Source of the DNA: a virus
Direction: 5' to 3' (one strand)
Length of the DNA: 50,348 nucleotides
IMG/VR virus record: IMGVR_UViG_3300009537_000020
Location: 1 to 50,348 of that record
Both the position numbers and the translations under genes were made by a program. The notes beneath the pieces were generated by a model. It saw nothing but the letters and a program-made list of their open reading frames with translations. It made no database searches and was not told the DNA's origin. This document shows, in pieces, positions 6,639 through 41,897 of the stretch; the first letter of the stretch is position 1; every line of letters starts with the position of its first letter.

Positions 6639-6808
6639 GGTTTCTCCCAAAAGTTTAATTTGTTTAATTCATTAAATTGCTCTCCCAAGACTTGTTTCCA
6701 ATCACTAGGCACAACCTCAACTTTAGTACGTATCTTGTGAAGCCCTTTAAAGCCGAAGATAGAATCATCTTCTTTATTCACCTGTTCTTCAATTAACTCT
6801 ATCTTCAT
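6635..6808 (-). CDS. small tail-region protein, unknown
   Basis: A 57-residue reading frame, ATG at 6808 after a clear GGAGGTGG site. The product is charged and contains a KIRTKVEVVP segment and a tryptophan pair. It overlaps the end of the sulfotransferase gene by 20 nt and the next small gene by 4 nt, consistent with coupled translation. No family recognised. Confidence 0.6.
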   Translation of the reverse strand: MKIELIEEQVNKEDDSIFGFKGLHKIRTKVEVVPSDWKQVLGEQFNELNKLNFWEKP

Positions 6809-7610
6809 TACCACCTCCGTAATTAAAAGCCTTGTTGTAACCCTTGAACCTGTCCATAATGGTCATTGATAATTCGGTAGTTAGATACTTCTTCCACTCA
6901 TCTATATCACAAGCATTGACCTTGCCCTCGCCCTTATGCGGATATTTATTTAGATACATAAAATCGGGGTCTTCGGCTGTATTTTTCACATCATTAAAGT
7001 CGTGTTCAAAGTGGTCTTGTTCCAAATCTACATAGAGTTTCTGCATCGTTTTTTTGGGGTTATCCGCCAATTCCTCATACTTAATTAAGATTACACCTTT
7101 CGGTGTTCTTCTTAATAAATCTTCAATGCCTGTAAGCGGAGCACCTATTATCCCCTGTGGGCTGAACATATTATCGGCTCTTGAAAATATCGTCTTTGCC
7201 TGTGGTGTCTGGGACTCATCAAGTATCGGGTTCTTACGGTGCTGTTTCTCAATAGAGGCGAATACGTTTCTTAAATCCCTTACCAAACATATCATCTTGC
7301 CTTCAGGAAAGAGCTGGTTAAATACTAAAGCGTTGCTCGACCAACCTCTTGACTTATCAAAGACCACCTTATCGGTATTGTGCCATGCCTTCGCTATTGC
7401 CCGTAATGTTCTTACCGTGCGTTCATCCACTTCCTCTCTGTGTAGGCTTAACATACTCTTGAACTCTGGTGAGGTTGACCAGAGGTGGCTTATCTGACTT
7501 AACATCTGCGATAATATGCTCGTTGTCGTAGCATGGAAACGTGGGTTCTGGTTTAAGATATTACAAAGTAAAGTTGAACCCGCTCTTGGTAATCCAGTAA
7601 TTACATTCAT
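6789..7610 (-). CDS. PAPS-dependent sulfotransferase
   Basis: Protein of 273 residues. It opens with NVITGLPRAGSTLL, the 5'-phosphosulfate loop of the sulfotransferase family, and later has LVRDLRNVFASI, matching the 3'-phosphate-binding region (RDPRD..S). Such enzymes move sulfate from PAPS to a hydroxyl or amine on a carbohydrate, protein or small molecule. The gene lies between receptor-binding tail genes and neck genes; its ATG overlaps the stop of the 68-residue gene upstream by 4 nt, so it is expressed with the virion genes. Likely targets, by inference, are tail proteins or host-surface glycans. Family assignment is strong, substrate unknown. Confidence 0.85.
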   Translation of the reverse strand: MNVITGLPRAGSTLLCNILNQNPRFHATTTSILSQMLSQISHLWSTSPEFKSMLSLHREEVDERTVRTLRAIAKAWHNTDKVVFDKSRGWSSNALVFNQLFPEGKMICLVRDLRNVFASIEKQHRKNPILDESQTPQAKTIFSRADNMFSPQGIIGAPLTGIEDLLRRTPKGVILIKYEELADNPKKTMQKLYVDLEQDHFEHDFNDVKNTAEDPDFMYLNKYPHKGEGKVNACDIDEWKKYLTTELSMTIMDRFKGYNKAFNYGGGNEDRVN

Positions 7611-16851: not shown

Positions 16852-17373
16852 TTAACGTATTCCTCTTGATTTTGGCCTGAACCGCTCATAATCCGCGGCA
16901 TTTGGATTCTCTGGGCATAAATGCCTCATAATATTCTTAAATTCACGTAACTTTGCTTCATTTCGTCTGTACCAGATTGTATTTCGTTCTGTACTATTTA
17001 ACGCGCGCATTTTTTCTTCATCAACAACCCAAACCATCTTCCCATTATCACTAAAACCTTTTACAGGATGCAACTCTTCCTTTGACAACATACCAATCGT
17101 AAATTCATCTTTCAATTGTTTAGCTCTACTCCACATCATATTTTTAGAACTAGGAGTTAATTTCTCGGCAGTAACACGTTCCAAATTCACTCCGTATTTC
17201 TGAGCATTCTTGGCTGACTCTGCCCAATCAACACGTTTCTTCCACCAAGGATCAGTTGATTTAAACTTTTCACTATTATACATTTTTGAAAGTTCTTCAA
17301 ATGCCGCAGGCTTTGCAACTTCTTTCTGCATCTGATGGCGTTCTATCGCCCCGTTTTTAACAATTATTTCCAT
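16852..17373 (-). CDS. unknown protein of the structural module
   Basis: Protein of 173 residues, Lys/Arg/Trp-rich and helical (PWWKKRVDWAESAKNAQKYG near residue 42). It has no clear membrane or catalytic motif. It overlaps the upstream zinc-ribbon gene by 10 nt. Position suggests a neck or internal protein. Confidence 0.65.
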   Translation of the reverse strand: MEIIVKNGAIERHQMQKEVAKPAAFEELSKMYNSEKFKSTDPWWKKRVDWAESAKNAQKYGVNLERVTAEKLTPSSKNMMWSRAKQLKDEFTIGMLSKEELHPVKGFSDNGKMVWVVDEEKMRALNSTERNTIWYRRNEAKLREFKNIMRHLCPENPNAADYERFRPKSRGIR

Positions 17374-17690
17374 CGCGCCAGTACCCCCATACTTTCAAAA
17401 GACGGTTTACCAACCAATAATGCTGGATTTATTCTCCAAACTTCTCGCCCATCTTCAGTTATTTCAACACTTTTATTTGCCAGGCAACCACAATCTTTAC
17501 ACTTATATTGATAAACTCTCGGTTGTATCTTTTGAACAAACTTCATTCTAGCCGGTTGAATAAATCCATCCTCTACACCTGGATTTAATAAATGTTTATT
17601 GCTCGGGCATAACATATACGGGCACCGGTATTCATCGTTCCACCCTTTGTTTTTATCACCAATAATACTATGAACTATCGCGTCCCACAT
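17364..17690 (-). CDS. zinc-ribbon protein
   Basis: Protein of 108 residues with Cys pairs CPYMLC and CKDCGC about 40 residues apart, consistent with a zinc ribbon. Related Cys-ribbon proteins recur in this genome (25124, 32937, 40498, 43641). Overlaps the GT-C-like gene upstream by 16 nt. Confidence 0.65.
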   Translation of the reverse strand: MWDAIVHSIIGDKNKGWNDEYRCPYMLCPSNKHLLNPGVEDGFIQPARMKFVQKIQPRVYQYKCKDCGCLANKSVEITEDGREVWRINPALLVGKPSFESMGVLARWK

Positions 17691-19057
17691 AATTCACACA
17701 CCTTTTCTTCTATACGTATTTTAGCTAAAAGATCATCCACATATTTTCTCATCACTTCTTGGGCCTTAAAGCCATTATCTATATGTTTAAGCTGTTGCTT
17801 AAACACCCCATAAGCCATCCCACGGCTTTCTGAATACTTAATTGCCATCTCGGTATGATATTTCCCTTGTTCTGGCCTATTAATTCCTAACCAATACGCC
17901 GCAAGGTTGGCGTGACATAGGAATGATTTCGGATCAAGAGTTAACCCATATTTTAATAATTTGTAACCATCATAAAATTTACCAATATGCAATTTACGTT
18001 CAGCAAGATTTACGTAATTACTTATACACTTTGGATAATTTTCTATGCCATTCTCATACAAAGTTTCAATATTCTTAAAAGCAGGAATATATTTATTCGT
18101 CCTGTAAATATATAAACCGACGACGACAACAAATAGTGGAAAGGCTACAGTCGAAGATAATAAGGAAGTCAACATCAGCGTCCAGCCGATCATAGGCAAA
18201 TAAAGATAACGCTCCGCAACAAATTGCCCCAACACTTTCCATTGGGTAAAAGGTAGAATGCCGGCCAAATAAATCATAACTCCCAAAGGAGATAAATAAA
18301 GCCCTGCCAGAGTGAACGCAACAGATATTAATACAGATTCCCAGAAATGACGGTTAAATGACTCCAAATCTTTTTTTACTTTAGGGTCTTTACCATATTC
18401 AAAACCAAACTCCTGGAAGAAAGCTAATCGTTTAGGAAATACCGTCATTCGTATGTAATATGCCAATACCTTAGGGACAACGGCCATCTTCCTCCAGGTG
18501 ATAGGGTCACCTTTTCCTATATTCCTTTTATTGAATCCAATACGAAATCTACGTCCAGTCAGGTACATAAATAAAGGCCAGAATAAAACTAACCCTGTTG
18601 TAGGTTGTGTAAACAAGAATATAAATGGAATGGCAATGCAGTTTATCGTCGAGCCTAACGCAGCAGTAAAGAAGATGGCTGCGATTAAAGCCCCGTACAA
18701 TCCAGGAATATTAACGAGAAAGAAATACGAGGTTAGCGTAAATAGCGCGGTTACCTGATAATACCCACCTGTTATCCAGGCGGTACAGGCTACGCAGATA
18801 GGATTAACACCAAAAAGTAGCGCGGCTTTCCAGCCCCATAAGAAATATATAATCGATACAATAACGCAATGAGTTAACGTAAGAAAAAAATGACGTGTCT
18901 TTTGAGGTTTTTTTGAATAGAATTCCGGCGGTGGTGAGGTTTCCGGTATTTCATAAAGATACCCCCATCTCCTAACGATGTCATCAATAAGATAGCAATA
19001 ATCATTAGTACGCCAATATAAAATAATGACAAGTGTGATTATTAAAAATAATTCCAT
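17675..19057 (-). CDS. GT-C/TMTC-like polytopic membrane glycosyltransferase candidate with TPR tail
   Basis: Protein of 460 residues with about 8-9 membrane segments in the first 325 residues and TPR-like helices at about 330-440. Three features match the GT-C/TMTC (PMT-related) superfamily. An acidic DD pair sits in the first loop (residues 25-26, YLIDDI). A segment reading ALLFGVNPICVACTAWITGG parallels the family's LFalHPihveavaWisG motif. VAERYLYLPMIGW matches the family's ERxLYLPS motif. Known members transfer sugars from lipid-linked donors across membranes. The gene overlaps its downstream neighbour by 16 nt and lies between capsid and tail genes, with no sign of recent insertion. Activity and target are inference. 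Confidence 0.7.
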   Translation of the reverse strand: MELFLIITLVIILYWRTNDYCYLIDDIVRRWGYLYEIPETSPPPEFYSKKPQKTRHFFLTLTHCVIVSIIYFLWGWKAALLFGVNPICVACTAWITGGYYQVTALFTLTSYFFLVNIPGLYGALIAAIFFTAALGSTINCIAIPFIFLFTQPTTGLVLFWPLFMYLTGRRFRIGFNKRNIGKGDPITWRKMAVVPKVLAYYIRMTVFPKRLAFFQEFGFEYGKDPKVKKDLESFNRHFWESVLISVAFTLAGLYLSPLGVMIYLAGILPFTQWKVLGQFVAERYLYLPMIGWTLMLTSLLSSTVAFPLFVVVVGLYIYRTNKYIPAFKNIETLYENGIENYPKCISNYVNLAERKLHIGKFYDGYKLLKYGLTLDPKSFLCHANLAAYWLGINRPEQGKYHTEMAIKYSESRGMAYGVFKQQLKHIDNGFKAQEVMRKYVDDLLAKIRIEEKVCELCGTR

Positions 19058-19070
19058 ATTTTTATCCTTT

Positions 19071-19116: not shown

Positions 19117-19566
19117 TTATGAAGTTCTTTTAATAACAACACCAATTGTCGAACTCCCTGCGGTCCCTTGTACCCCTCGAACAACTGTAATTCCTGAAGC
19201 CGTTGTTACAGCTACCGTAGTTGTCGTTAAAGCTTGTTGAGATCCGTTAAGAGTATTTGTATTATTTACTGAAGCAACAGCTACTGTGCCAGCAGATCCT
19301 ATACGTACTGTATAAGCTGCCGCAATTGCTGACGTTGCTCCTATTGTCACAAAAGTTTTTGTAATATTTCCTGCAAACGGAACAGCTAAATATGCTGTCT
19401 CAGCTGTTGAAGCAGACCCGAAAGTATATTGAAGCATCTGGGTTTGGCCAATAGCTGTACCGCCAACATACAAATTATTACAATCTAAATCACCAGCTCC
19501 TGAGTTGGAATTAGAAGCTGAAGCTGCTTGAACGGAAATACCATTTGGAAAATGCGTTAAAGGCAT
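19117..19566 (-). CDS. capsid decoration or fibre-like protein
   Basis: Protein of 149 residues with an AAGGAGG site; Thr/Ala/Ser/Val-rich and beta-like throughout. The N-terminus (PLTHFPNGISVQAA) and an LDCNNLYVGG segment resemble phage fibre or decoration proteins. It directly follows the capsid gene and is bracketed by two strong hairpins, suggesting high expression. Function inferred. Confidence 0.65.
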   Translation of the reverse strand: MPLTHFPNGISVQAASASNSNSGAGDLDCNNLYVGGTAIGQTQMLQYTFGSASTAETAYLAVPFAGNITKTFVTIGATSAIAAAYTVRIGSAGTVAVASVNNTNTLNGSQQALTTTTVAVTTASGITVVRGVQGTAGSSTIGVVIKRTS

Positions 19567-19674: not shown

Positions 19675-20562
19675 TTAAACCAGCTGGCCATAAAGATAGC
19701 GCCAATCATCCCAGACAATACCAATACGGTAATAACCCAAATAAATAGCGGTCATTGTATTGGAATCCTTATCTTGGAAGAATTGGACCGGTTCACGGTT
19801 CCACCAGATTTGATACTCTTTTTGCATTGAATAGTCAGACATAAACCAGTTATTGGTATCTGTAAGACGTTTCCAAACAATAAGTTTGTACTTTCCTTGG
19901 TGGAAGTTACCGTTATTTTCAGCTGTATCAACTTTCCCTTTGGTATTAATAATCTCCCAACCTGTTTGTTCCAATGCGATAGGAATAGTGATCGTATCGG
20001 GCTCGATTGAAATCAATTCACCGATATCATCCTTAAACCCATGCATTGCAATACGGGTTGTTTCGACGTTCGTTGCCGAAAGGGCAAGCGTACCTTCGTT
20101 TGATTGAGCGGCCGTGGTACCCACATTTGATCCGTGATCAGAAGCGCAAAGTTCCGCGCCATCCCCATCAGTAGGCTCAAACGTGAATGCCAGATTGTAA
20201 AGACTGGCGCCCGATTTTTCTCGTGATCGTGACGCAGAAACCGACATGTTCTTCGGATACCGCGACATTACACGTTGTTGATCGTCAGCAGCGAGTTTTC
20301 GCTGTATTTCGATCTTTGCTGCAAACTCTGTAAAGGTTGCTGTTTTATCGTAAGCCTGGGTAGGTGATACTTCGGCTACTTTTCCAGTAAACTCAACAAA
20401 GTCTGGTACCTGACCAACTGCGCCTGTTTTCTCGAACGCAGCTTCTGTCTTCAACACATTGAAGAGGTCAGGAACCATTCGCTTAATCTGCATGTATTGG
20501 TCTTGGTAGATCTTGCGGAAATCCTTCTCCAAAAGATCTGGCCAATTAGCGGCTAATTGCAT
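19675..20562 (-). CDS. major capsid protein
   Basis: Protein of 295 residues with a strong AGGAGGTG site. It opens NWPDLLEKDFRKIYQDQY and contains an SASRSREKSGASLYNLAF stretch and ELCASDHGS, patterns of HK97-fold capsid proteins near the gpT-like group. Gene order (portal, scaffold, small structural protein, this gene) and the strong hairpin behind it support the call. No protease domain is fused. Confidence 0.8.
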   Translation of the reverse strand: MQLAANWPDLLEKDFRKIYQDQYMQIKRMVPDLFNVLKTEAAFEKTGAVGQVPDFVEFTGKVAEVSPTQAYDKTATFTEFAAKIEIQRKLAADDQQRVMSRYPKNMSVSASRSREKSGASLYNLAFTFEPTDGDGAELCASDHGSNVGTTAAQSNEGTLALSATNVETTRIAMHGFKDDIGELISIEPDTITIPIALEQTGWEIINTKGKVDTAENNGNFHQGKYKLIVWKRLTDTNNWFMSDYSMQKEYQIWWNREPVQFFQDKDSNTMTAIYLGYYRIGIVWDDWRYLYGQLV

Positions 20563-22551: not shown

Positions 22552-22812
22552 CTATTGTTTTGACATTGCCGCTTCTAAAACATCTTCCGGTGCTTTTAAG
22601 ATTAGCGGAAGAATGTCTATTTGCCCGGCAAATTTAGCAGATTCTATCTCATCCCCAGCGCGTGCTGCGCTCATTAATTTATCCGTAAGCTGGTCCTTCA
22701 GGCACTTGACCCCCTCCCTGTTGCTCGGTCCCAACAGGAGGCCCTTGATAATTTCCCATCCTGGGTGAATTAAGATTTCCTGTAGGTGCTGCATTTCCTT
22801 GTCCAACGGCAT
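22552..22812 (-). CDS. small protein between portal and scaffold
   Basis: Protein of 86 residues with a GGGAGGTC site; its first 134 nt overlap the end of the portal gene in another frame. It contains HPGWEIIKGLLL and a helical C-terminal half, a pattern seen in small phage proteins next to portals. Role unknown, perhaps a head-assembly factor. Confidence 0.7.
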   Translation of the reverse strand: MPLDKEMQHLQEILIHPGWEIIKGLLLGPSNREGVKCLKDQLTDKLMSAARAGDEIESAKFAGQIDILPLILKAPEDVLEAAMSKQ

Positions 22813-24847
22813 TCTGACCTCCCTGTTGCCCCATTAGGGCTGATTCCTGTAATTTCATCTGATATTTTGATCGGTGTTCCAATAGATGCGATGTCATTTG
22901 AAATAGAGCTTGAGGCGTTAAATGTTTCGCCATTGTACGCTTAAACTCTGCATGTGAATTAATATGAGCTAAATGGTCATCATTATCATTTACTTCAACT
23001 TCACCTTCCTGGTACATCAGCATATTTTCATCCTCAATATCACCAGGACTCAATTCATAATCCGGCTTAGGGCCTATAATTTTTTCAGCATCTTTCTTGC
23101 CGAGAGAAAGAATATAATTCGCGCGTAATTCCCAGGCATAAGCCGGATTTTGATTAACATAAGGATCCTGAGCCAATGACTGGAAAAGAACCTGATTAAC
23201 TTGTGATTCAATTGCCTGATTCTGTGAAGAAAGGTCAATTGACATATAACAATCATATTCCCCGGCAATCATTTCCGGTGAAAGTCGAGTCCATTTCTGT
23301 TTTCCGTCTTTACCAAGTACCCTATTGGCTATTGCCGGATCCAGATTTTCCTCATAATCTTGTCGTGTTCCTGTAATTAGGTCAGAGAATATCTTTACAA
23401 CCCTTGCCGCAATCGGTGATATACGCTGATCACCCTGTGCAATAATGGCCAGTGTCCCGCGCGCGGTAGGCCTATTTGCCAGCTCTTTACCTAACATTGG
23501 ATCAGTTACGTTTGTAACCATCTGAATAAGCTGCATAACAAGCTGTTCTTCCTGGAATGAAATAGATAGCCTGCCTGCGTTATAATCCGGAAATACTACA
23601 TCTCGTGTTGGGTCATCTAATGGGATGCCGGTTGCCGGCCGTACAGATATCTTCTTAGGATCAAAACCGGATGCCGGCCTGTAAAAGAAGAACGGGGCAA
23701 TAACCATGTTGCCTGCATCTATGCGTTGATTATGAATGGCATCCATTTCATTATGAAGGTGATAAACGACTTCCGGGATGCCTTTCCCGATCATTGTGTT
23801 CGGCCGGCGTAAGAATGGACGTATAATCCAGGGGCGTTTACCTATTTTTGATACGCAATGTAATGGTTTACCGGCTGCATAAAGTTCTAAGTCGGGAAGT
23901 GTAATAAAAATACATTCCTCTCTCAAATCATCATCATTAATATCATATTTAATGTACGCCTCATAGAATTTGATAGGATAACTTTCCATCCGGTCTTTAT
24001 ACTCAGTTATCCCCAAGGCCATGTTTCGCGTATCTTCAATACCGCTTGGTTCAAATAGCTTGGTCAATTTCTCTTTCAGGAGATCTGTATCAAAATCAGG
24101 AAGGAGTAATCCTCTGGCTTTCAATTCAAGAACCATCGGATATGTAAAATACGCTTCTTCGATTATATAATCAGCTTCCCGCACATTTGGGGCATTAACC
24201 GGGAAATAAACCCGGTCAAGGTCTTTTGCCACCCATTTTGCGCGTTCACGTTTAACTTGTTCGTAAGTAATCTTATATTTTATTTCCCCGCGTCCATCCA
24301 CACTTTCCGGGACTGCCCTGGTCACATACGGATAATATTTTTCCCACATCCTTTTAACTTGCAGACCCCCTTCAACAACAAGGCGCCATACGTATTCATC
24401 AACTTTATCCTGTGTATCTTCCATGTCCTTTGTCAAAGCCCAATGCATCAGAACTTTATTATTTTCAGCAACAGTATCATCATGTTTTTCGCGTCCGATA
24501 AAATGCATCAAATCCGGGTTCCAGACCATAGGAAATATCTTTGAATGCATCATATCCGAAGCAATTGTCGTTATCATCGTTGAAATATTACTTGAACCTT
24601 CCCAAGGCCCGTTAGTTTCTTTTAAGCCTTCATAATTTTTTATGGCACGTTTCTTCATTTCGATCAATTCAACGCGTTGTTTCTTGCATTCTTCAACACA
24701 ATCATTAACGAATTTAACAATGTCCTTCTTTTTTGTTGAATCAAGCTGAAACATGTGACCGTAATTAATCTCTTTTTCTTCATCGATCAATTTTTCTGTT
24801 TTATCAGGAAAAAGTTCTTCAACTGCGGATAGTTTAAATTTAGCCAT
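22679..24847 (-). CDS. portal protein
   Basis: Protein of 722 residues. Starts after AGGAATATATA. Helical N-terminus, then MKKRAIKNYEGLKETNGPWEG..SNI and further motifs (LMHFIGREKHDD, EYYIEEAYFTYP-type wing region, IGKGIPEVVYHLHNEMDAIHNQRIDAGN) that match P22-type portal proteins, including the Met/Asn-rich crown. The C-terminus (about 680-722) is Gly/Gln/Pro-rich and disordered, overlapping the next gene. It forms the dodecameric DNA channel. Confidence 0.85.
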   Translation of the reverse strand: MAKFKLSAVEELFPDKTEKLIDEEKEINYGHMFQLDSTKKKDIVKFVNDCVEECKKQRVELIEMKKRAIKNYEGLKETNGPWEGSSNISTMITTIASDMMHSKIFPMVWNPDLMHFIGREKHDDTVAENNKVLMHWALTKDMEDTQDKVDEYVWRLVVEGGLQVKRMWEKYYPYVTRAVPESVDGRGEIKYKITYEQVKRERAKWVAKDLDRVYFPVNAPNVREADYIIEEAYFTYPMVLELKARGLLLPDFDTDLLKEKLTKLFEPSGIEDTRNMALGITEYKDRMESYPIKFYEAYIKYDINDDDLREECIFITLPDLELYAAGKPLHCVSKIGKRPWIIRPFLRRPNTMIGKGIPEVVYHLHNEMDAIHNQRIDAGNMVIAPFFFYRPASGFDPKKISVRPATGIPLDDPTRDVVFPDYNAGRLSISFQEEQLVMQLIQMVTNVTDPMLGKELANRPTARGTLAIIAQGDQRISPIAARVVKIFSDLITGTRQDYEENLDPAIANRVLGKDGKQKWTRLSPEMIAGEYDCYMSIDLSSQNQAIESQVNQVLFQSLAQDPYVNQNPAYAWELRANYILSLGKKDAEKIIGPKPDYELSPGDIEDENMLMYQEGEVEVNDNDDHLAHINSHAEFKRTMAKHLTPQALFQMTSHLLEHRSKYQMKLQESALMGQQGGQNAVGQGNAAPTGNLNSPRMGNYQGPPVGTEQQGGGQVPEGPAYG

Positions 24848-25673: not shown

Positions 25674-27317
25674 CTAATTATAGAAATTCCCATGCCCTTC
25701 AACTAAGACCGGCTTATACCGCTCAAAGTTAGAGAGGGCAAGGTATCTGCACAAACTAGGAAAATCGGTGTTCATATCTTTTGGTTTTTCTTTCGGATCG
25801 CGGTCATAGGTCGATTTAAAGTCATCCCAAACGTAATGTTCTATTTGGTAAATGAACTCCTTTAGATCGTTTGCCGCGCGAAACTTGGGGTGGTTAGCAA
25901 AGCTGATAGGTCGCGTTTGGTCAAATCGCAAAAGAGCGCCGAACTGTTTATGTCCTAATGCTATGTTATCATCCCCGAAAGTGAATCTCATGGGATGGAA
26001 AATTTCTTTGGCCGCTTTCTCAAACTCTTCACGGCATGTCATTCCTGTGTTACCATATTTCTTTGGTCCAAAATTCGGGTCTAATATCCTGACAAGTATG
26101 CGTTCTTTAGCAAAAGTCTCTGATTCCTTACAAAATCTAGCCACATCCTCCGGTAATGCGTCTGGCAACCAACCTTCCCGATATGCCCAATAATCACCGC
26201 CATCATCACAAGCGACCCATAAAAGGGCTTGAGGCTTCCGATCGTGCGGGTCCATAAGCATAACCCGCGGCCAATGTATCGGAGGTTCACCATTAACGAT
26301 AATTCCTTTTGACCGGTTCAAAGGCCACTCTTCAAATCTATCGAATGTGTGAACATCCCTGTCCCAGGACTTCCAGATGCGTCCGGCCAGATACCTGAAC
26401 TTGCCATGAGCACGCGTTTCACGCTCTTCCTCGGTCAATTTCATCTCAAATTTACGGATAGCACGTTCGGATAACCCGATTTTAACACCTGAAAGGGGAT
26501 TAATCCTCTCCAGGTTATGGCGCATATCGCAAATAACCGAGAAAACATTCGGATTTTTGGAGCTATAAATTTCGTCAAAGATCCAGGGTTCTTTAAGCGG
26601 TGTCAGTGTAAACCAGCATAAACCCTCATTATCGACCAAACCACGAACGGCCGCAATATACATAGGCCTTGGAGGCGGTTCATCGAAATGTATCCAGTCA
26701 CCATCCCAGCCTTCAGCCGAGAATGGGTCAGATTCATAGGTTAAAATATCAAAGTGCGAAACTTTCCCGGAAACATGTTTAATATACCAATCAACCTCAA
26801 CGCCAAGATTCCCTTTTTTCGGAGCGCAATAATAAGCATCCTGCGGCATCCACTTCTTAAGGTTCTTGATAATAACCGAAGCACCTTTTTTATAATCCTG
26901 GCAGAATATCCTTCCTTCAGTCGCTTCAGTAAACTTCCTGGCTTTCCACCAGTCGGGGTATCTACCGGTCGCGTGTATGATATCCTTTAAAACCCCCGCT
27001 GTGGTCTTACCCGATCGATTCGCCCCGAAATACGCTGTCGTTTCCGACAGGGCATTCATAAACTCAAACTGAGGGCAGCCCTTTATCGTTATCTTTTTGT
27101 TGTCGTATGTCAGAAAGCTTAGGATCGCGTTTTTGCAATTTTTTCCGTCGCAATTTAGTTGGTGAGGCCAGAAGAATTTCAGGGGGTTCTTCGCTATCCT
27201 GTTTTTCATCTCCTTCTGTAAACTCATCAACCGCCGAATTTCCTCGTTTGATAACGAGATTAGCTTTTCTGATAAGTTCGTCACGTTCTGCCTGGAGCTG
27301 TTCGTCAGTAAGCTCAC
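25674..27317 (-). CDS. terminase large subunit
   Basis: Protein of 547 residues. Walker A GANRSGKTT (about 98-106) and Walker B DWIHFDEPPP (about 210-220) show the packaging ATPase. The C-terminal half has the RNase H-like nuclease pattern (MLMDPHDRKPQALLW, ILDPNFGPKKYG). The best start is a GTG at 27317 with AAGGAG 6 nt upstream, giving the usual NEEIRRLMSL...NPLKFFWPH N-terminus. It implies a 254-nt overlap with the small-terminase gene in another frame. Confidence 0.85.
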   Translation of the reverse strand: MSLLTNSSRQNVTNLSEKLISLSNEEIRRLMSLQKEMKNRIAKNPLKFFWPHQLNCDGKNCKNAILSFLTYDNKKITIKGCPQFEFMNALSETTAYFGANRSGKTTAGVLKDIIHATGRYPDWWKARKFTEATEGRIFCQDYKKGASVIIKNLKKWMPQDAYYCAPKKGNLGVEVDWYIKHVSGKVSHFDILTYESDPFSAEGWDGDWIHFDEPPPRPMYIAAVRGLVDNEGLCWFTLTPLKEPWIFDEIYSSKNPNVFSVICDMRHNLERINPLSGVKIGLSERAIRKFEMKLTEEERETRAHGKFRYLAGRIWKSWDRDVHTFDRFEEWPLNRSKGIIVNGEPPIHWPRVMLMDPHDRKPQALLWVACDDGGDYWAYREGWLPDALPEDVARFCKESETFAKERILVRILDPNFGPKKYGNTGMTCREEFEKAAKEIFHPMRFTFGDDNIALGHKQFGALLRFDQTRPISFANHPKFRAANDLKEFIYQIEHYVWDDFKSTYDRDPKEKPKDMNTDFPSLCRYLALSNFERYKPVLVEGHGNFYN

Positions 27318-34739: not shown

Positions 34740-36356
34740 TTACATTGACTTTGGTTTTGGTGTCCTTGCCGGTTCAACCTCTTCATCCTCTGAACACAAA
34801 CATTCCGTGGTTAGAAGCATTCCGGCGACAGAAGCGGCATTGACCAAGGCGGTCTTAACAACCTTAGCGGGGTCAATAACACCCATTTCCATCAGGTCAC
34901 CGTATTTATTTGTTAGAAAATCGTACCCGTCATTAACGCCGAGCATCAATTTAATTTGGGCGATGATCTCAGACCCTTCAACCCCGGCGTTAAAAGCGAT
35001 CTGAATTAACGGAGCGCGCAATGCTTTTTTAACAATGCGTTGGCCAATCAACTCCTCTTCCGTTTCCTTTCCTGTTTCTTTGATGGAGTCGGTTGAATGA
35101 AGGTACGCCAAACCGCCGCCTGGAACGATGCCGTCCTCAAGAGCCGCCCTGGTAGCCAAAAGCGAGTCCTCGATCCTCATTTTCTTTTCCTTCTGTTCAA
35201 CCTCGGTCGGCGCGCCGACTTTGATAACGGCAACCCCGTTTGTTAGCTTTGATAATCGTTCCCGGAGCTTTTCCCGGTCATAATCGCTTTCTGATTTTTC
35301 GATCTGCTGTTTTATAGACGTTATTCGGCCTTCAATAACCGATTTGTCACCTTTGCCATCAACTATGGTTGTAAAATGGCGCGTGGCTTTGATCGTTTCA
35401 CATTCGCCTAAATGGCTAAGATCAGCGTCTTCAGGCCGAAGGCCGCTTACCGGCCCTATGATGCTGCCGCCGGTTAATGCCGCAATATCACTTAATTGTT
35501 CTGTTCTAAACTCACCAAAATACGGAGATTTTACAACAACAAGTGAAATATTATTCTTCATCCTTGTCTGGACAAGGTTTTGTAATACGGATGCGTGGAC
35601 CGAATTAGCCATCAAACAGACTGCCCGGCCGGTGTTGATCGCTTTCTCAATGATCCCCTTGATCTGATTAACATGAGAAATGTCGCCATCGATAATGATT
35701 ATGTACGGCTTTGACATATTAGCTTCCATCTTAACCGGGTCGGTAATGAAATACGGGCTCATTAACCCTTCCATGAGCTGCATCCCTTCCATGATCTCAA
35801 TAAAAGTATCGCTCCCCTGGTAATTATCCTCAATGGTAATAACGCCGTCTTCCCCGGCCGTCTTTACCGCTTCATTGATCAATTCGCCGATCCCGCGGTC
35901 ATTATTAGCTGATAACGAGGCAACTTTTATGATTGTTTCCTCTTCGATCAATTTTATCTTTGTGCTGTCAATGTATTTAATGACCTCTTCAACCGCTTTA
36001 TCGATGCCCCGTTTGATTAAGATCGGGTTTGCCCCTGATTTAAGGACTTTTAACCCTTCCGTAAAGATTTCCTGGGCAAGTAATGTGGCCGTTGTTGTCC
36101 CGTCGCCGGCGTCATCAGCCGTTTTCTGGGCCACTTGTCGTACCAATAAAAGGCCGAGTTGTTCGTCCGGATCCTTTGCTTCAACCTGTCGCGCTACAGT
36201 TACCCCGTCCTTTGTGCATACCGGATAACCATAATGGAACCCAAAAATCATATTCCGCCCGCGTGGCCCGAGTGTGACCTTTACCGAATTTGCAATAAGG
36301 TCAACGCCTCTTTTAAGTTTTTCCCTGGCTTCGTCCGAAAATGTTACTGACTTCAT
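34740..36356 (-). CDS. groEL: GroEL-type chaperonin
   Basis: 538 residues, near the normal 548. Group I chaperonin with apical, intermediate and equatorial domains in order: KDGVTV (Asp50, equivalent of E. coli Asp52), DAGDGTTTATLL (Asp85, equivalent of Asp87), IEDSLLATRAA (equivalent of Asp398) and PGGGLAYL. So the ATPase residues are kept. The tail lacks the GGM repeat and ends in an acidic and basic stretch (EDEEVEPARTPKPKSM). AAAGGAGGCA precedes the ATG. A phage GroEL is uncommon; folding of capsid or ejection proteins is the likely role. Host contamination is unlikely, as it lies inside an early operon. Confidence 0.95.
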   Translation of the reverse strand: MKSVTFSDEAREKLKRGVDLIANSVKVTLGPRGRNMIFGFHYGYPVCTKDGVTVARQVEAKDPDEQLGLLLVRQVAQKTADDAGDGTTTATLLAQEIFTEGLKVLKSGANPILIKRGIDKAVEEVIKYIDSTKIKLIEEETIIKVASLSANNDRGIGELINEAVKTAGEDGVITIEDNYQGSDTFIEIMEGMQLMEGLMSPYFITDPVKMEANMSKPYIIIIDGDISHVNQIKGIIEKAINTGRAVCLMANSVHASVLQNLVQTRMKNNISLVVVKSPYFGEFRTEQLSDIAALTGGSIIGPVSGLRPEDADLSHLGECETIKATRHFTTIVDGKGDKSVIEGRITSIKQQIEKSESDYDREKLRERLSKLTNGVAVIKVGAPTEVEQKEKKMRIEDSLLATRAALEDGIVPGGGLAYLHSTDSIKETGKETEEELIGQRIVKKALRAPLIQIAFNAGVEGSEIIAQIKLMLGVNDGYDFLTNKYGDLMEMGVIDPAKVVKTALVNAASVAGMLLTTECLCSEDEEVEPARTPKPKSM

Positions 36357-38335: not shown

Positions 38336-39271
38336 TTATTCTTTTATGCTTCCATCAGGGTATTCTTTGTATGCTGATGGCGGAATTTCTTGTGACGGAA
38401 TATTTTCCTGTTTTTCCTGTTCCTGACTTGGTACAGGGATGCCTCTAGGAACGTCAGAATTGCCACTAGAATCGATTTTTACGCCTTCATTGACCTCTAT
38501 AGTATCCCCATCCCAATCTGCTTCATTTACGGCTTGTGGGATATCGGCAGAAATTGTGTTTTTTATTGTTTCATCCGCGCTTATTTGTGTTTGGATTTCT
38601 GATGAAAGAGGAAGAAGCTTGCATAAACGCTTAACCGCTGTTTTTTTTGCCATTTCAGCCGGCCATGTAGTCCAAGGGCTATAATCTGAATTCTTTGATT
38701 TAGATGCGGCTTTTACATTATCTATTTCATCTTTTTGAAGATACACAAAAACCTTTTCGTTAGCATTCATATTCTTGGCAATAGCGTAAACTCCTATAAT
38801 ATCGCCACGATTACCAGGAGCCGGGATATGCTTTAATTTAGGGGTTAACCCTAACTCATAATCAAAAATGTCCTTTTCGTGGACAACTTCGGCTGTAAGG
38901 ACAACCGCGCGGCCTGAACGGTTAACAAGCTCACAAAGCCCTTTATATCCAACAATAAGCTGGACTTCATCTCTGTAACTTCCGTCTTTCTGCTTATTTT
39001 TGAACGGGACCAAATAGACGTGACCAAGATTGCCCGGCTGTAACCCAAGCTGAACCGTTTGAATGACGGCACTAATCAAGCTGGTTTGTGTGCATTTAGA
39101 CAATTGTGGTGAAGACTTTAGGATCATTGTAAAGACACCGATCAGCCGCTCTGTAGTTATTGTCCGTGGTAAAGCGGCTTCAATGAGATCCTTTTTCTGT
39201 GTCAGGAAATCATAAACAGTAAGTATCTTATTTTCAGAAACCTGATTTATTACATCTTTTGTCGTGCTCAT
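38336..39271 (-). CDS. recT: RecT-family single-strand annealing protein
   Basis: 311 residues after AAAGGAGAAAAGGA. Clear RecT pattern: LSKCTQTSLISAVIQTVQLGLQPG, GHVYLVPFKN, EVQLIVGYKGLCEL, SPWTTWPAEMAKKTAVKRLCK. The Pro/Gln/Glu-rich C-terminus (about 250-311) is disordered. It anneals strands made by the adjacent exonuclease. Overlaps that gene by 4 nt. Confidence 0.9.
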   Translation of the reverse strand: MSTTKDVINQVSENKILTVYDFLTQKKDLIEAALPRTITTERLIGVFTMILKSSPQLSKCTQTSLISAVIQTVQLGLQPGNLGHVYLVPFKNKQKDGSYRDEVQLIVGYKGLCELVNRSGRAVVLTAEVVHEKDIFDYELGLTPKLKHIPAPGNRGDIIGVYAIAKNMNANEKVFVYLQKDEIDNVKAASKSKNSDYSPWTTWPAEMAKKTAVKRLCKLLPLSSEIQTQISADETIKNTISADIPQAVNEADWDGDTIEVNEGVKIDSSGNSDVPRGIPVPSQEQEKQENIPSQEIPPSAYKEYPDGSIKE

Positions 39272-40179
39272 TCCTTTTCTCCTTTGTTTAACCTTATCCT
39301 TAAAACCCGCGAAGAGCTTTGGTAACTGTATTTATTAAAAACATCTGGTTGCTCAGATTTTAATGTTTTAGTATCAATTCTTGTGCTTGTCTGAGCCTTC
39401 CAGGTGACTAGATAGTTTGATGTTTTTATTCCCAAGTTATCCCCTACGACCATTTTCAATTTAGCTTCAATATCATCCTGCTGTTTTTTTAAATTACTTA
39501 GATCGTTTTTTGTTTGTTGTAATAAAGCAATGCTTGAGTTCATCTCCTCAATCGCCTGTATCTGATCATCGCTTTCAGGATAAAGCTCTGCAATGAAATC
39601 AGAATCCATCCCAAGGGCTATTGGCGGGGTATCATTCTTAACCATAGACCAAAAATCAAGAACGCCTTTCTCGATCTTGTCAGACAGCACAGCATCAAAA
39701 TCAATTTTCTTATAAACAAATTTTTGACCGCCGATAAGGCACGCGATCCAGCCAACCCTTCTGCCGGACACAAGAAGATTAAACATGACTTGACAAATAT
39801 ATTCCCCGGGGATTTCTTCGCCTTCCCACTCTTTAGCTTTCCAGGCTGAACATGTTTTTACTTCCAACAATTCATCTGTTCCTTCTATTAACCGGTCAAC
39901 CTGGCACTTCATAAAATTATATTTTGGATGCGTATATTGTTTTGGCGCGCGACGCACCTTCATGCCGGTTTTACGTGAAAATTTCTTTGCAACAAAATCC
40001 TCCAACTCTACCCCTAACTCAACAGCTTCAATATCACTTAAATCTTTCGCTCCAACGCGACCGGTCTTTTCAGACCATAATTGTAATGGCGAAACCCAAC
40101 GGCTTATGCCAATAGCCGCGGCGGCATCGCTGCCTCCAATAAAAGTCTTTCTGTCTTCCGTCGTTATAACTTTTTTCAT
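39268..40179 (-). CDS. YqaJ-type lambda-exonuclease-family nuclease
   Basis: 303 residues. GGSDAAAAIGISRWVSPLQLW, ELGVELEDFVAKKF, CQVDRLIEG and ELLEVKTC give the order and catalytic residues (Glu, Asp, Glu-x-Lys) of YqaJ viral recombinases. The C-terminal 80 residues are helical with a DNA-binding look. Works with RecT. The start follows GGAGGGAGATTA. Confidence 0.9.
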   Translation of the reverse strand: MKKVITTEDRKTFIGGSDAAAAIGISRWVSPLQLWSEKTGRVGAKDLSDIEAVELGVELEDFVAKKFSRKTGMKVRRAPKQYTHPKYNFMKCQVDRLIEGTDELLEVKTCSAWKAKEWEGEEIPGEYICQVMFNLLVSGRRVGWIACLIGGQKFVYKKIDFDAVLSDKIEKGVLDFWSMVKNDTPPIALGMDSDFIAELYPESDDQIQAIEEMNSSIALLQQTKNDLSNLKKQQDDIEAKLKMVVGDNLGIKTSNYLVTWKAQTSTRIDTKTLKSEQPDVFNKYSYQSSSRVLRIRLNKGEKE

Positions 40180-41042: not shown

Positions 41043-41897
41043 CTAATGTGTTGGGTTAAGCTTATTTTGCTTTTTAAGTCCTAACATCTTAATTAATGTT
41101 TTGGTTTGCCATTTTCTTTCAGCATCCCTAGCAGCATCCCTAGCAGCCCTAGCAGCAGCCCAAGCGGCAGCCCCAGCAGCCCTAGCGGCATCCCAAGCAG
41201 CAGCCCTAGCTGCATCCCCAGCAGCCCCAGCAGCAGCCCAAGCGGCATCCCAAGCGGCAGCCCTAGCGGCATCCCAAGCAGCAGCCCTAGCGGCATCCCA
41301 AGCAGCAGCCCTAGCTGCATCCCCAGCAGCCCAAGCGGCATCCCTAGCAGCATCCCCAGCGGCATCCCTAGCAGCAGCCCCAGCAGCAGCCCTAGCGGCA
41401 TCCCAAGCAGCAGCCCAAGCGGCATCCCTAGCAGCAGCCCCAGCGGCATCCCCAGCAGCAGCCCTAGCAACAGCCAATTCTTCTTTGCTTATTTCCCCTA
41501 ACGCAAATAGTCTAGCTTTTTCTATTACAATTCTAGGTCTTTTATCGTTAGGGTATTCCTTTTCAAATATCGGCAATACTCTTTTTGCACATTTGACAAC
41601 GAATAGCCTTGCGTTCTTATCATTCCACGAATCAATACGCCTAATTAGCCTTGCCTGTTGGGCGACAACCTTATTGTCATCCTTAATAATGGTCCCCTTT
41701 AACTCAACTTCATAAAGTTCTTTGTTTGTCCATTGAATTAAATCTTTTTGTTCACAGGCATGATAACCCCTCTTACATAACCCAATATCTTCGATGAAGG
41801 GCATCCACTTGCCCTTACGTTTACCTTTAGGTAAATACCACTTGCCTGTGCCATAAGCTGGTTCGCCGTCTTTTTGAAGAAATTTGTAGTATTTCAT
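41043..41897 (-). CDS. Ala/Arg/Asp/Trp-repeat protein (DUF7666-like head)
   Basis: 284 residues. The first 140 residues (WYLPKGKRKGKWMPFI, KRGYHACEQKDLIQW, ELYEVELKG, ARLIRRIDSWNDKNARLF, VLPIFEKEYPNDKRPR) match phage proteins with a DUF7666-like head. Residues about 145-260 are a long amphipathic helix of AAAWDAARAA-type repeats. The start follows AAGGATAGGAT. Function not known to me. Confidence 0.75.
   Translation of the reverse strand: MKYYKFLQKDGEPAYGTGKWYLPKGKRKGKWMPFIEDIGLCKRGYHACEQKDLIQWTNKELYEVELKGTIIKDDNKVVAQQARLIRRIDSWNDKNARLFVVKCAKRVLPIFEKEYPNDKRPRIVIEKARLFALGEISKEELAVARAAAGDAAGAAARDAAWAAAWDAARAAAGAAARDAAGDAARDAAWAAGDAARAAAWDAARAAAWDAARAAAWDAAWAAAGAAGDAARAAAWDAARAAGAAAWAAARAARDAARDAERKWQTKTLIKMLGLKKQNKLNPTH
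41118..41470 (-). repeat. GC-rich tandem coding repeat (units of about 9-24 nt)
   Basis: About 350 nt of degenerate repeats with cores such as GCCGCTAGGGCTGCT and GCTTGGGATGCC; three 24-nt units stand in a row near 41264-41330. The high-GC insert contrasts with the AT-rich genome. All of several frames stay open here on both strands, an effect of the repeat. Copy number changes by slippage are expected. Confidence 0.7.

What the first reader, a model, noticed from the sequence alone, without database searches (positions are those of the whole stretch)
17675..19057. TMTC/GT-C-like membrane glycosyltransferase candidate inside the capsid module
A 460-residue polytopic protein with the GT-C acidic loop, an LFGVNP..AWITG motif, an ERYLYLPMIGW motif and TPR-like tail is overlapped with virion genes. 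TMTC-type enzymes are known from eukaryotes and bacteria; a virion-operon copy suggests glycan modification of exported or surface molecules, timed with virion production.
Basis: partly seen in the sequence, partly recalled or inferred. Interest (0 to 1): 0.75.

Follow-up and report, generated by a model that had tools for sequence, protein, structure and literature searches.

The report
Phage head-operon membrane sugar transferase
A virus of bacteria carries, among its head-building genes, a membrane enzyme that looks like a known class of sugar-attaching proteins but whose charge pattern suggests it sits upside-down in the membrane, facing the cell interior where new virus particles are built.

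Summary
In detail: 17675-19057 on the MINUS strand is a 460-aa polytopic protein with a DD loop, an AERYLYLP motif and a TPR-like tail, in the head module. It has no useful Pfam, PHROG or NCBIfam match, but profile comparison with bacterial TMTC-like proteins gives E 5e-35 over 403 columns (controls 0.007 or worse). An AlphaFold2 model (pLDDT 90) matches GT-C enzymes best (Pmt4 Z 16.0, Pmt2 15.8, ArnT 14.4). Catalytic-loop DD and phosphate-binding ER..Y are kept in 7 of 7 phage members; the TMTC motifs RxD, KE and DW, and the DUF1736 profile, are not, so it is TMTC-like, not a TMTC. The gene travels with a Ser/Thr-rich putative decoration-protein gene: both present in 7 of 7 loci, both absent in 4 of 4 readable relatives. 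New: K/R residues are swapped between membrane sides. Loops that are cytoplasmic in cellular homologues hold 0-1 K/R in all 7 phage proteins (12-24 in 34 of 34 bacterial homologues), while the motif-bearing side holds 23-28. The positive-inside rule thus predicts an upside-down GT-C facing the cytoplasm, where virions assemble. Activity, orientation and acceptor are untested.

The parts
17675..19057 (-). GT-C / TMTC-like membrane protein, 460 aa (11 predicted TM segments + TPR tail)
19065..19068 (-). ribosome-binding-site-like AGGA upstream of the ATG
   Evidence: sequence read
18980..18985 (-). D25 D26, acidic pair of the first motif loop (EL1), invariant in 7 of 7 phage and 30 of 30 bacterial homologues
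18350..18556 (-). EL4 (residues 168-236), K/R-rich loop with juxtamembrane helix; the homologous loop faces outside in cellular GT-Cs
18200..18214 (-). E282 R283 Y L Y286 motif (EL5); the Arg is the lipid-phosphate ligand in GT-C structures per PMC7801869
   Evidence: PMC7801869 section 7
17834..18070 (-). TPR-like helical tail (about residues 330-408)
19117..19566 (-). 'FPNG' protein, 149 aa, 26% Ser+Thr; probable capsid decoration protein and candidate acceptor; present in all 7 GT-C loci
19675..20562 (-). major capsid protein (Mu gpT-like, PF10124 1.1e-12)
17364..17690 (-). zinc-ribbon gene overlapping the GT-C stop by 16 nt
16852..17373 (-). 173-aa gene conserved downstream of the slot

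Best explanation
The gene encodes a membrane glycosyltransferase of the GT-C fold, descended from (or sister to) bacterial TMTC-like proteins: 11 transmembrane helices, an acidic first loop (D25 D26), an Arg in the last motif loop (R283) for the phosphate of a lipid-linked sugar, and a TPR tail that would hold the acceptor. It is a fixed part of a head-gene cassette with the small Ser/Thr-rich 'FPNG' protein. I think it works from the inside: its charge distribution predicts that it inserts upside-down relative to known GT-C enzymes, so that the active site and TPR tail face the cytoplasm. There it would take a sugar from a host polyprenyl-phosphate sugar on the inner leaflet and attach it to a virion protein, most likely the FPNG protein encoded next to it, before or during head assembly. 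SHOWN: gene, conservation, homology, predicted fold, kept D25/D26/R283, cassette linkage, charge swap. INFERRED: enzymatic activity (about 0.75), inverted orientation (about 0.65), virion acceptor given activity (about 0.5).
For: Homology: hhalign of 6 phage vs 20 bacterial proteins, prob 99.9, E 5.3e-35, 403 columns; TM-only 8.8e-25, TPR-only 1.6e-9; reversed 0.021, TM reversed 0.11, five local-shuffle controls 0.0069-0.48. The phage profile finds bacterial proteins at E 3.9e-17. Fold: AF2 pLDDT 90.1, pTM 0.88 with 34 rows; VIA ranks 1-16 are PMT, ArnT or oligosaccharyltransferase entries, best 9i5k Z 16.0 over 279 residues and 6p25_B Z 15.8 over 281. Catalytic residues: DD 7 of 7, ER..Y 7 of 7. 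Linkage: GT-C and FPNG present together in 7 of 7 loci, both absent in L083/L096, L094, L095, L084; L010 keeps the MCP-FPNG-GT-C order although its other head proteins are far diverged. Orientation: K/R in inside-homologous loops 0-1 in 7 of 7 phage proteins and 12-24 in 34 of 34 bacterial homologues; outside-homologous loops 23-28 vs 8-21 (same pattern with other loop borders or rows). The N-terminus is ME, MD or MV (7 of 7) at an ATG with a purine-rich ribosome-site-like stretch upstream. Yardstick: a bias of 6-7 goes with opposite orientations of homologous E. coli pairs (PMC3962082, section 12); here it is -22 to -27.
Against: GT-C enzymes of described topology act on the extracytoplasmic side (PMC6801728, passages); I found no inverted precedent in the searches made. 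EL1 and EL4, which hold most of the K/R, are long, and long loops obey the positive-inside rule less well (recalled). The K/R could serve substrate binding. KE (EL3), RxD and DW, proposed metal or sugar ligands in TMTCs, are missing in 7 of 7, so activity is not assured. No GT2 or GtrA gene was found in the window, so the donor must come from the host. No acceptor was identified; FPNG as acceptor rests on gene adjacency and composition. 27 of the 34 rows behind the model are bacterial homologues, which biases it to their fold. The cassette correlation rests on few loci.
Confidence: 0.45

Rival explanations
1. Ordinary-sided GT-C: same enzyme, inserted like known GT-Cs with the active site outside; it glycosylates the host envelope (polysaccharide, lipid A, surface protein) late in infection, for instance to block adsorption of released virions. 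The K/R-rich loops bind an acidic acceptor or lipid phosphates.
For: GT-Cs of described topology work outside (PMC6801728); phage GT-C enzymes that alter O-antigen are known (recalled; a gtrC gene in a Salmonella prophage appears in the listing, PMC4413052). A related phage, L083, has another polytopic protein with a K/R-rich N-terminus in the same slot.
Against: 0-1 K/R on the side that would be cytoplasmic and 23-28 on the side that would be outside, in 7 of 7, contradicts the positive-inside rule; no gtrA/gtrB partner found in the window; the gene is tied to a head-protein gene.
Confidence: 0.25
2. Repurposed pseudo-enzyme: a GT-C/TPR scaffold that no longer transfers sugar and serves as a membrane anchor or adaptor for head assembly or for capturing a host protein through its TPR tail.
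For: Loss of KE, RxD and DW in 7 of 7, of the HP histidine in 5 of 7, and of the Glu after it (29 of 30 bacterial rows) in 7 of 7; long stem branch of the phage clade (1.51).
Against: D25, D26, H63, P86, E282, R283, Y286 are invariant in 7 of 7 across 39-72% identity, and the ORF is under purifying selection. Seven bacterial rows with H-P at M4 and G-Y at M3 also lack KE and RxD, so these motifs are not universal.
Confidence: 0.2
3. Annotation or assembly artefact: a stray bacterial gene or chance ORF.
For: The contig is an uncultured viral record; no match in 50,697 phage records.
Against: Same gene in the same head module of six other viral contigs, codon-level purifying selection.
Confidence: 0.01

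Closest known systems
Bacterial TMTC-like membrane proteins with TPR tails (46 genome loci; Acidobacteriota, Myxococcota, Planctomycetota, Elusimicrobiota, Daviesbacteria and others)
   Same: Full-length profile match, same TM map, DD, H in TM2, AERYLYLP, TPR tail
   Different: Phage proteins lack KE and RxD (kept in most but not all bacterial rows), have short, nearly K/R-free 'inside' loops and only about 80 aa of TPR
Human TMTC1-4 (O-mannosyltransferases)
   Same: 11 TM + TPR architecture, M1 DD and M7 ERxxY (PMC7801869)
   Different: No DUF1736 match, no M3, M4, M5; charge bias reversed against bacterial relatives; human proteins were not compared directly here
PMT / POMT, ArnT, STT3 (GT-C fold enzymes)
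   Same: Best structural matches, Z 13-16 over about 240-290 residues
   Different: 6-12% identity; catalytic side predicted reversed
Phage GtrI/II-type O-antigen glucosyltransferases (recalled)
   Same: Phage-encoded polytopic GT-C-type enzymes
   Different: Those come with gtrA/gtrB as conversion genes (recalled); here neither is found in the window and the gene is in the head module
Virion glycosylation by phage-encoded glycosyltransferases (e.g. mycobacteriophage Maravista, PMC11256854, abstract in search listing only)
   Same: Idea of sugar on capsid protein made by phage enzymes
   Different: I recall those enzymes as soluble and nucleotide-sugar dependent; this one is a membrane GT-C

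Membership tests
GT-C superfamily | GT-C membrane fold | tested here: met
   AF2 pLDDT 90.1; VIA top rows Pmt4 Z 16.0/279 residues, Pmt2 15.8/281, ArnT 14.4/276. Foldseek alone listed only TPR proteins in its top 50.
GT-C superfamily | Acidic residue(s) in the first external loop | tested here: met
   D25 D26 in 7 of 7 phage, 30 of 30 bacterial rows
GT-C superfamily | Arg before TM10 that binds lipid phosphate (ERxxY) | tested here: met
   E282 R283 Y286 in 7 of 7
GT-C superfamily | Motif loops on the extracytoplasmic side, N-terminus inside | tested here: inconclusive
   K/R counts predict the opposite; no experiment
GT-C superfamily | Transfer of sugar from a polyprenyl-phosphate donor | not testable with these tools
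   needs an enzyme assay
TMTC family | DUF1736 (PF08409) match | tested here: not met
   no match at E<=10 in hmmscan of the window protein or the own-record search
TMTC family | M3 RxD in EL2 | tested here: not met
   G98..Y100 in 6 of 7, N..Y in 1 of 7
TMTC family | M4 KE(T/Q) in EL3 | tested here: not met
   T followed by I or V in 7 of 7
TMTC family | M5 DW in EL4 | tested here: not met
   FF at 213-214 in 7 of 7; the aligned bacterial columns are not DW either
TMTC family | C-terminal TPR domain | tested here: met
   TPR-only profile comparison E 1.6e-9; model helices 330-408 with TPR matches
Gtr-type phage conversion cassette | gtrA and gtrB (GT2) partners | tested here: not met
   PF04138 and PF00535: no match at E<=10 in the record; the record may be incomplete
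PMT_2 (PF13231) | profile match | tested here: not met
   no match at E<=10

The most novel reading that the evidence does not exclude
A topologically inverted GT-C: a member of this fold whose active site faces the cytoplasm, evolved in phages so that a lipid-linked-sugar enzyme can glycosylate a capsid decoration protein (encoded next to it) while heads are assembled.
Probability: 0.35. Interest if true: 0.85.

Novelty: new variant of a known kind. Interest (0 to 1): 0.62.

Why it matters
GT-C enzymes are described as acting on the outside or lumenal face. A natural, conserved family with the catalytic DD and ER..Y residues but reversed charge bias would test whether this fold can work upside-down, would show how a polytopic enzyme changes orientation in evolution, and would link polyprenyl-phosphate sugars to virion glycosylation. 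The orientation question can be settled by simple reporter fusions in a laboratory strain.

Tried and rejected
Pfam (E up to 10), NCBIfam and PHROG scans of the window protein gave nothing useful (PHROG 11593 E 0.16). Phage-record tblastn: no match for two members. First genome-contig scan with the phage alignment: none of 74 pattern stretches is a relative. The first AF2 job with 3 rows was poor (pLDDT 45.3) and not used. Foldseek against PDB and BFVD gave no row at E<=0.001; its PDB top 50 are TPR or other repeat proteins. The GT-C match comes from the VIA second look.

Motif scans: VAERYLYLP in viral contigs gave 16 stretches; 11 are 48-aa chance frames, 5 are family (4 known contigs fetched again under new ids, and L010). 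GQF(V/I/M)AERY gave 8 stretches; 6 are family contigs, L103 and L104 are chance frames.

Host: the tree puts the 7 phage proteins in one clade (100) with a very long stem; the nearest row L059 is flagged as a meeting of long branches. The shared WISGG..Y look with Daviesbacteria suggested a Patescibacteria host, but the tree does not place them together; host left open.

L083 slot protein: by eye like an O-antigen ligase/polymerase, but PF04932, Pfam, NCBIfam and PHROG gave no support; left unassigned. The L095 257-aa protein looked like a GT-A enzyme by eye; no Pfam, PHROG or NCBIfam match.

Rows dropped: of 46 bacterial motif loci 11 were left out of the 35-row count and 19 of the later counts because the frame is cut N-terminally; 3 rows from genome-search loci were added; of 16 regions fetched, 10 gave a usable frame, 6 of them repeats and 4 new. 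Bacterial in-minus-out bias ranged -1 to 11, -3 to 11, -8 to 10.

Papers: PMC7801869 outline and part 1 of sections 7, 8, 9; PMC6801728 passages; PMC3962082 passages and sections 11, 12; all others search listings only. Searches bearing on an inverted or phage GT-C/TMTC listed nothing that I recognised as one; the library holds open-licence papers only.

Full report
1. What is there. The ORF 17675-19057 lies on the minus strand and codes 460 residues; the + strand of the same stretch is closed. The window is a 50,348-base virus record, 40.6% GC, and the two ends do not repeat each other in the lengths tried. Around it, reading 5' to 3' on the minus strand: terminase-like protein 25674-27317, portal 22679-24847, two further genes, major capsid protein 19675-20562, a 149-aa protein 19117-19566 that begins MPLTHFPNG (called FPNG here), the GT-C gene, a zinc-ribbon gene overlapping it by 16 nt, and a 173-aa gene. 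The ATG follows AAAAAAGGATAAAAAT.

2. Family. Scans of 2.9 million viral contigs gave six further distinct members: L002 (72%), L003 (67%), L004 (50%), L005 (50%), L081 (46%), L010 (39%). None is in 50,697 phage records for the two queries tried, and the pattern scan of genome contigs with the phage alignment gave no relative. pS is 0.79-0.91 and pN 0.20-0.34 in the five pairs compared, so the protein is under constraint.

3. Homology. A scan of bacterial and archaeal genomes for VAERYLYLP..G gave 46 loci; all 46 hold a long frame around the motif, and the eight scanned with Pfam all have TPR tails. hhalign of the phage alignment (6 rows) with 20 of these gives probability 99.9 and E 5.3e-35 over 403 columns. 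Membrane part alone 8.8e-25, tail alone 1.6e-9; reversed target 0.021, reversed membrane part 0.11, five locally shuffled targets 0.0069 to 0.48. The phage profile also finds bacterial proteins directly (best E 3.9e-17; 13 of 13 genomes, which were chosen because they hold such a protein).

4. Fold. With 34 rows (7 phage, 27 bacterial) AlphaFold2 gives pLDDT 90.1 and pTM 0.88, against 45.3 with three rows. Foldseek lists only TPR and other repeat proteins in its top 50. Re-alignment of 971 of its best chains by VIA puts PMT, ArnT and oligosaccharyltransferase entries at ranks 1-16 (Pmt4 9i5k Z 16.0, rmsd 4.6, 279 residues; Pmt2 6p25 15.8, 4.4, 281; ArnT 5f15 14.4, 5.0, 276), with ALG9, AftD and DPY19 further down. 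The tool warns that helical bundles can reach Z 13-14 without kinship; the two best rows stand above that and the sequence profile points to the same superfamily.

5. Motifs. PMC7801869 (sections 7 and 9) lists seven TMTC motifs. M1 DD and M7 ERxxY are invariant in 7 of 7 phage and 30 of 30 bacterial rows. M3 RxD, M4 KE and M5 DW are absent in 7 of 7 phage rows, replaced by conserved G.Y (6 of 7; N.Y in 1), T(I/V) and FF. Bacterial rows keep K at M4 in 23 of 30 and R at M3 in 19 of 30; seven rows have H-P at M4 and seven G-Y at M3. M2 and M6 were not scored as motifs. PF08409 (DUF1736) does not match. So: GT-C yes, TMTC-like in architecture and in two motifs, not a TMTC.

6. Charge swap. I mapped loops by joint alignment and, second, by the helices of the model. 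With six phage and 35 bacterial rows the loops homologous to cytoplasmic loops hold 0-1 K/R in 6 of 6 phage proteins and 12-25 in 35 of 35 bacterial ones; the other side holds 26-30 and 7-20. With model-based borders, 7 phage and 30 bacterial rows: 0-1 vs 13-25 and 23-28 vs 8-21. With four more bacterial rows: bias -22 to -27 in phage, -8 to +10 in 34 of 34 bacteria. Density is 0.020 inside / 0.162 outside in phage and 0.198 / 0.083 in bacteria. The inside loops differ in sequence and length between members (23-38 aa in total) and yet stay free of K/R apart from one position, which suggests maintenance and not only inheritance. The N-terminus is ME/MD/MV in 7 of 7 at an ATG with a purine-rich stretch upstream, which removes the usual N-in signal; L003 and L005 have in-frame upstream alternatives that I consider less likely because the ribosome-site-like GGAGG would then lie inside the gene. 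PMC3962082 section 12 tabulates biases of 6-7 for homologous E. coli pairs with opposite orientations. PMC6801728 (passages) describes GT-C members as similarly organised, most with the N-terminus on the cytoplasmic face and the conserved motifs in lumenal loops. The simplest reading of the swap is an inverted GT-C. Caveat: most of the K/R lie in the two long loops.

7. Cassette. Where the stretch downstream of the capsid gene can be read, the GT-C and FPNG genes are both present in the window, L002, L003, L004, L005, L081 and L010, and both absent in L083 (same contig as L096), L094, L095 and L084. L080/L090, L088/L085, L092, L093 and L097 end before the slot and were not counted; L098 is a very weak portal match without a capsid hit and was not counted. 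In L094 and L095 a larger protein follows the capsid gene instead; that of L094 begins MSLSHYPHGI, which recalls the FPNG start and suggests a capsid-attachment leader (my inference). FPNG proteins are 21-28% Ser+Thr (6 of 6) against 13-15% in the capsid proteins (5 of 5). In L081 a methyltransferase gene (PF13578, 3.6e-20) sits between FPNG and GT-C. These facts make FPNG a reasonable acceptor, nothing more.

8. Reading. Best: a GT-C enzyme that works with the head module, probably from the cytoplasmic side, on a virion protein. Main rival: ordinary orientation and a surface acceptor. Second rival: a scaffold that has lost transfer. Probabilities are in the fields. Orientation and activity are open to direct test.

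Noticed in passing
window 6789-7610 (-): Sulfotransferase-like protein (PF13469 1.1e-13, PF00685 5.5e-13, phrog_27463 7e-32) in the same strand and module as tail genes; a second possible modifying enzyme.
   Followed up: partly
window 34740-36356 (-): Phage-encoded GroEL/Cpn60 chaperonin (phrog_5725 2.6e-138, PF00118 4.8e-68).
   Followed up: no
window 17364-17690 (-): 108-aa zinc-ribbon protein scores above the Pfam cut-off for the WRKY DNA-binding domain (22.4 vs 21 bits, E 1.4e-4), probably a chance zinc-site resemblance; gene conserved next to the slot.
   Followed up: partly
window 41043-41897 (-): Imm5-like putative immunity domain (PF21805 3.5e-9) on a phage.
   Followed up: no
window 38336-40179 (-): RecT annealing protein and YqaJ/RecE-type exonuclease pair.
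   Followed up: no
L083:6287-7330: In a relative without the GT-C, another 348-aa polytopic protein with K/R-rich N-terminus occupies the slot before the zinc-ribbon gene; unassigned.
   Followed up: partly
L085:4995-6157 and L095:5363-6880: The capsid gene is split around an ORF of about 160 aa (MDNQQERLFWWFVGFFDGEGW...) that looks like a LAGLIDADG homing endonuclease, so probably an intron or intein; name from recall, not searched.
   Followed up: no
L081:5889-6611: Methyltransf_24 gene (3.6e-20) inserted between FPNG and the GT-C gene.
   Followed up: partly
L030, L037, L040, L044, L058, L060, L066: Daviesbacteria/Microgenomates TMTC-like proteins have H-P in place of K-E in EL3 and G-Y in place of R-D in EL2, so cellular homologues also vary at the proposed metal and sugar ligands.
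   Followed up: partly
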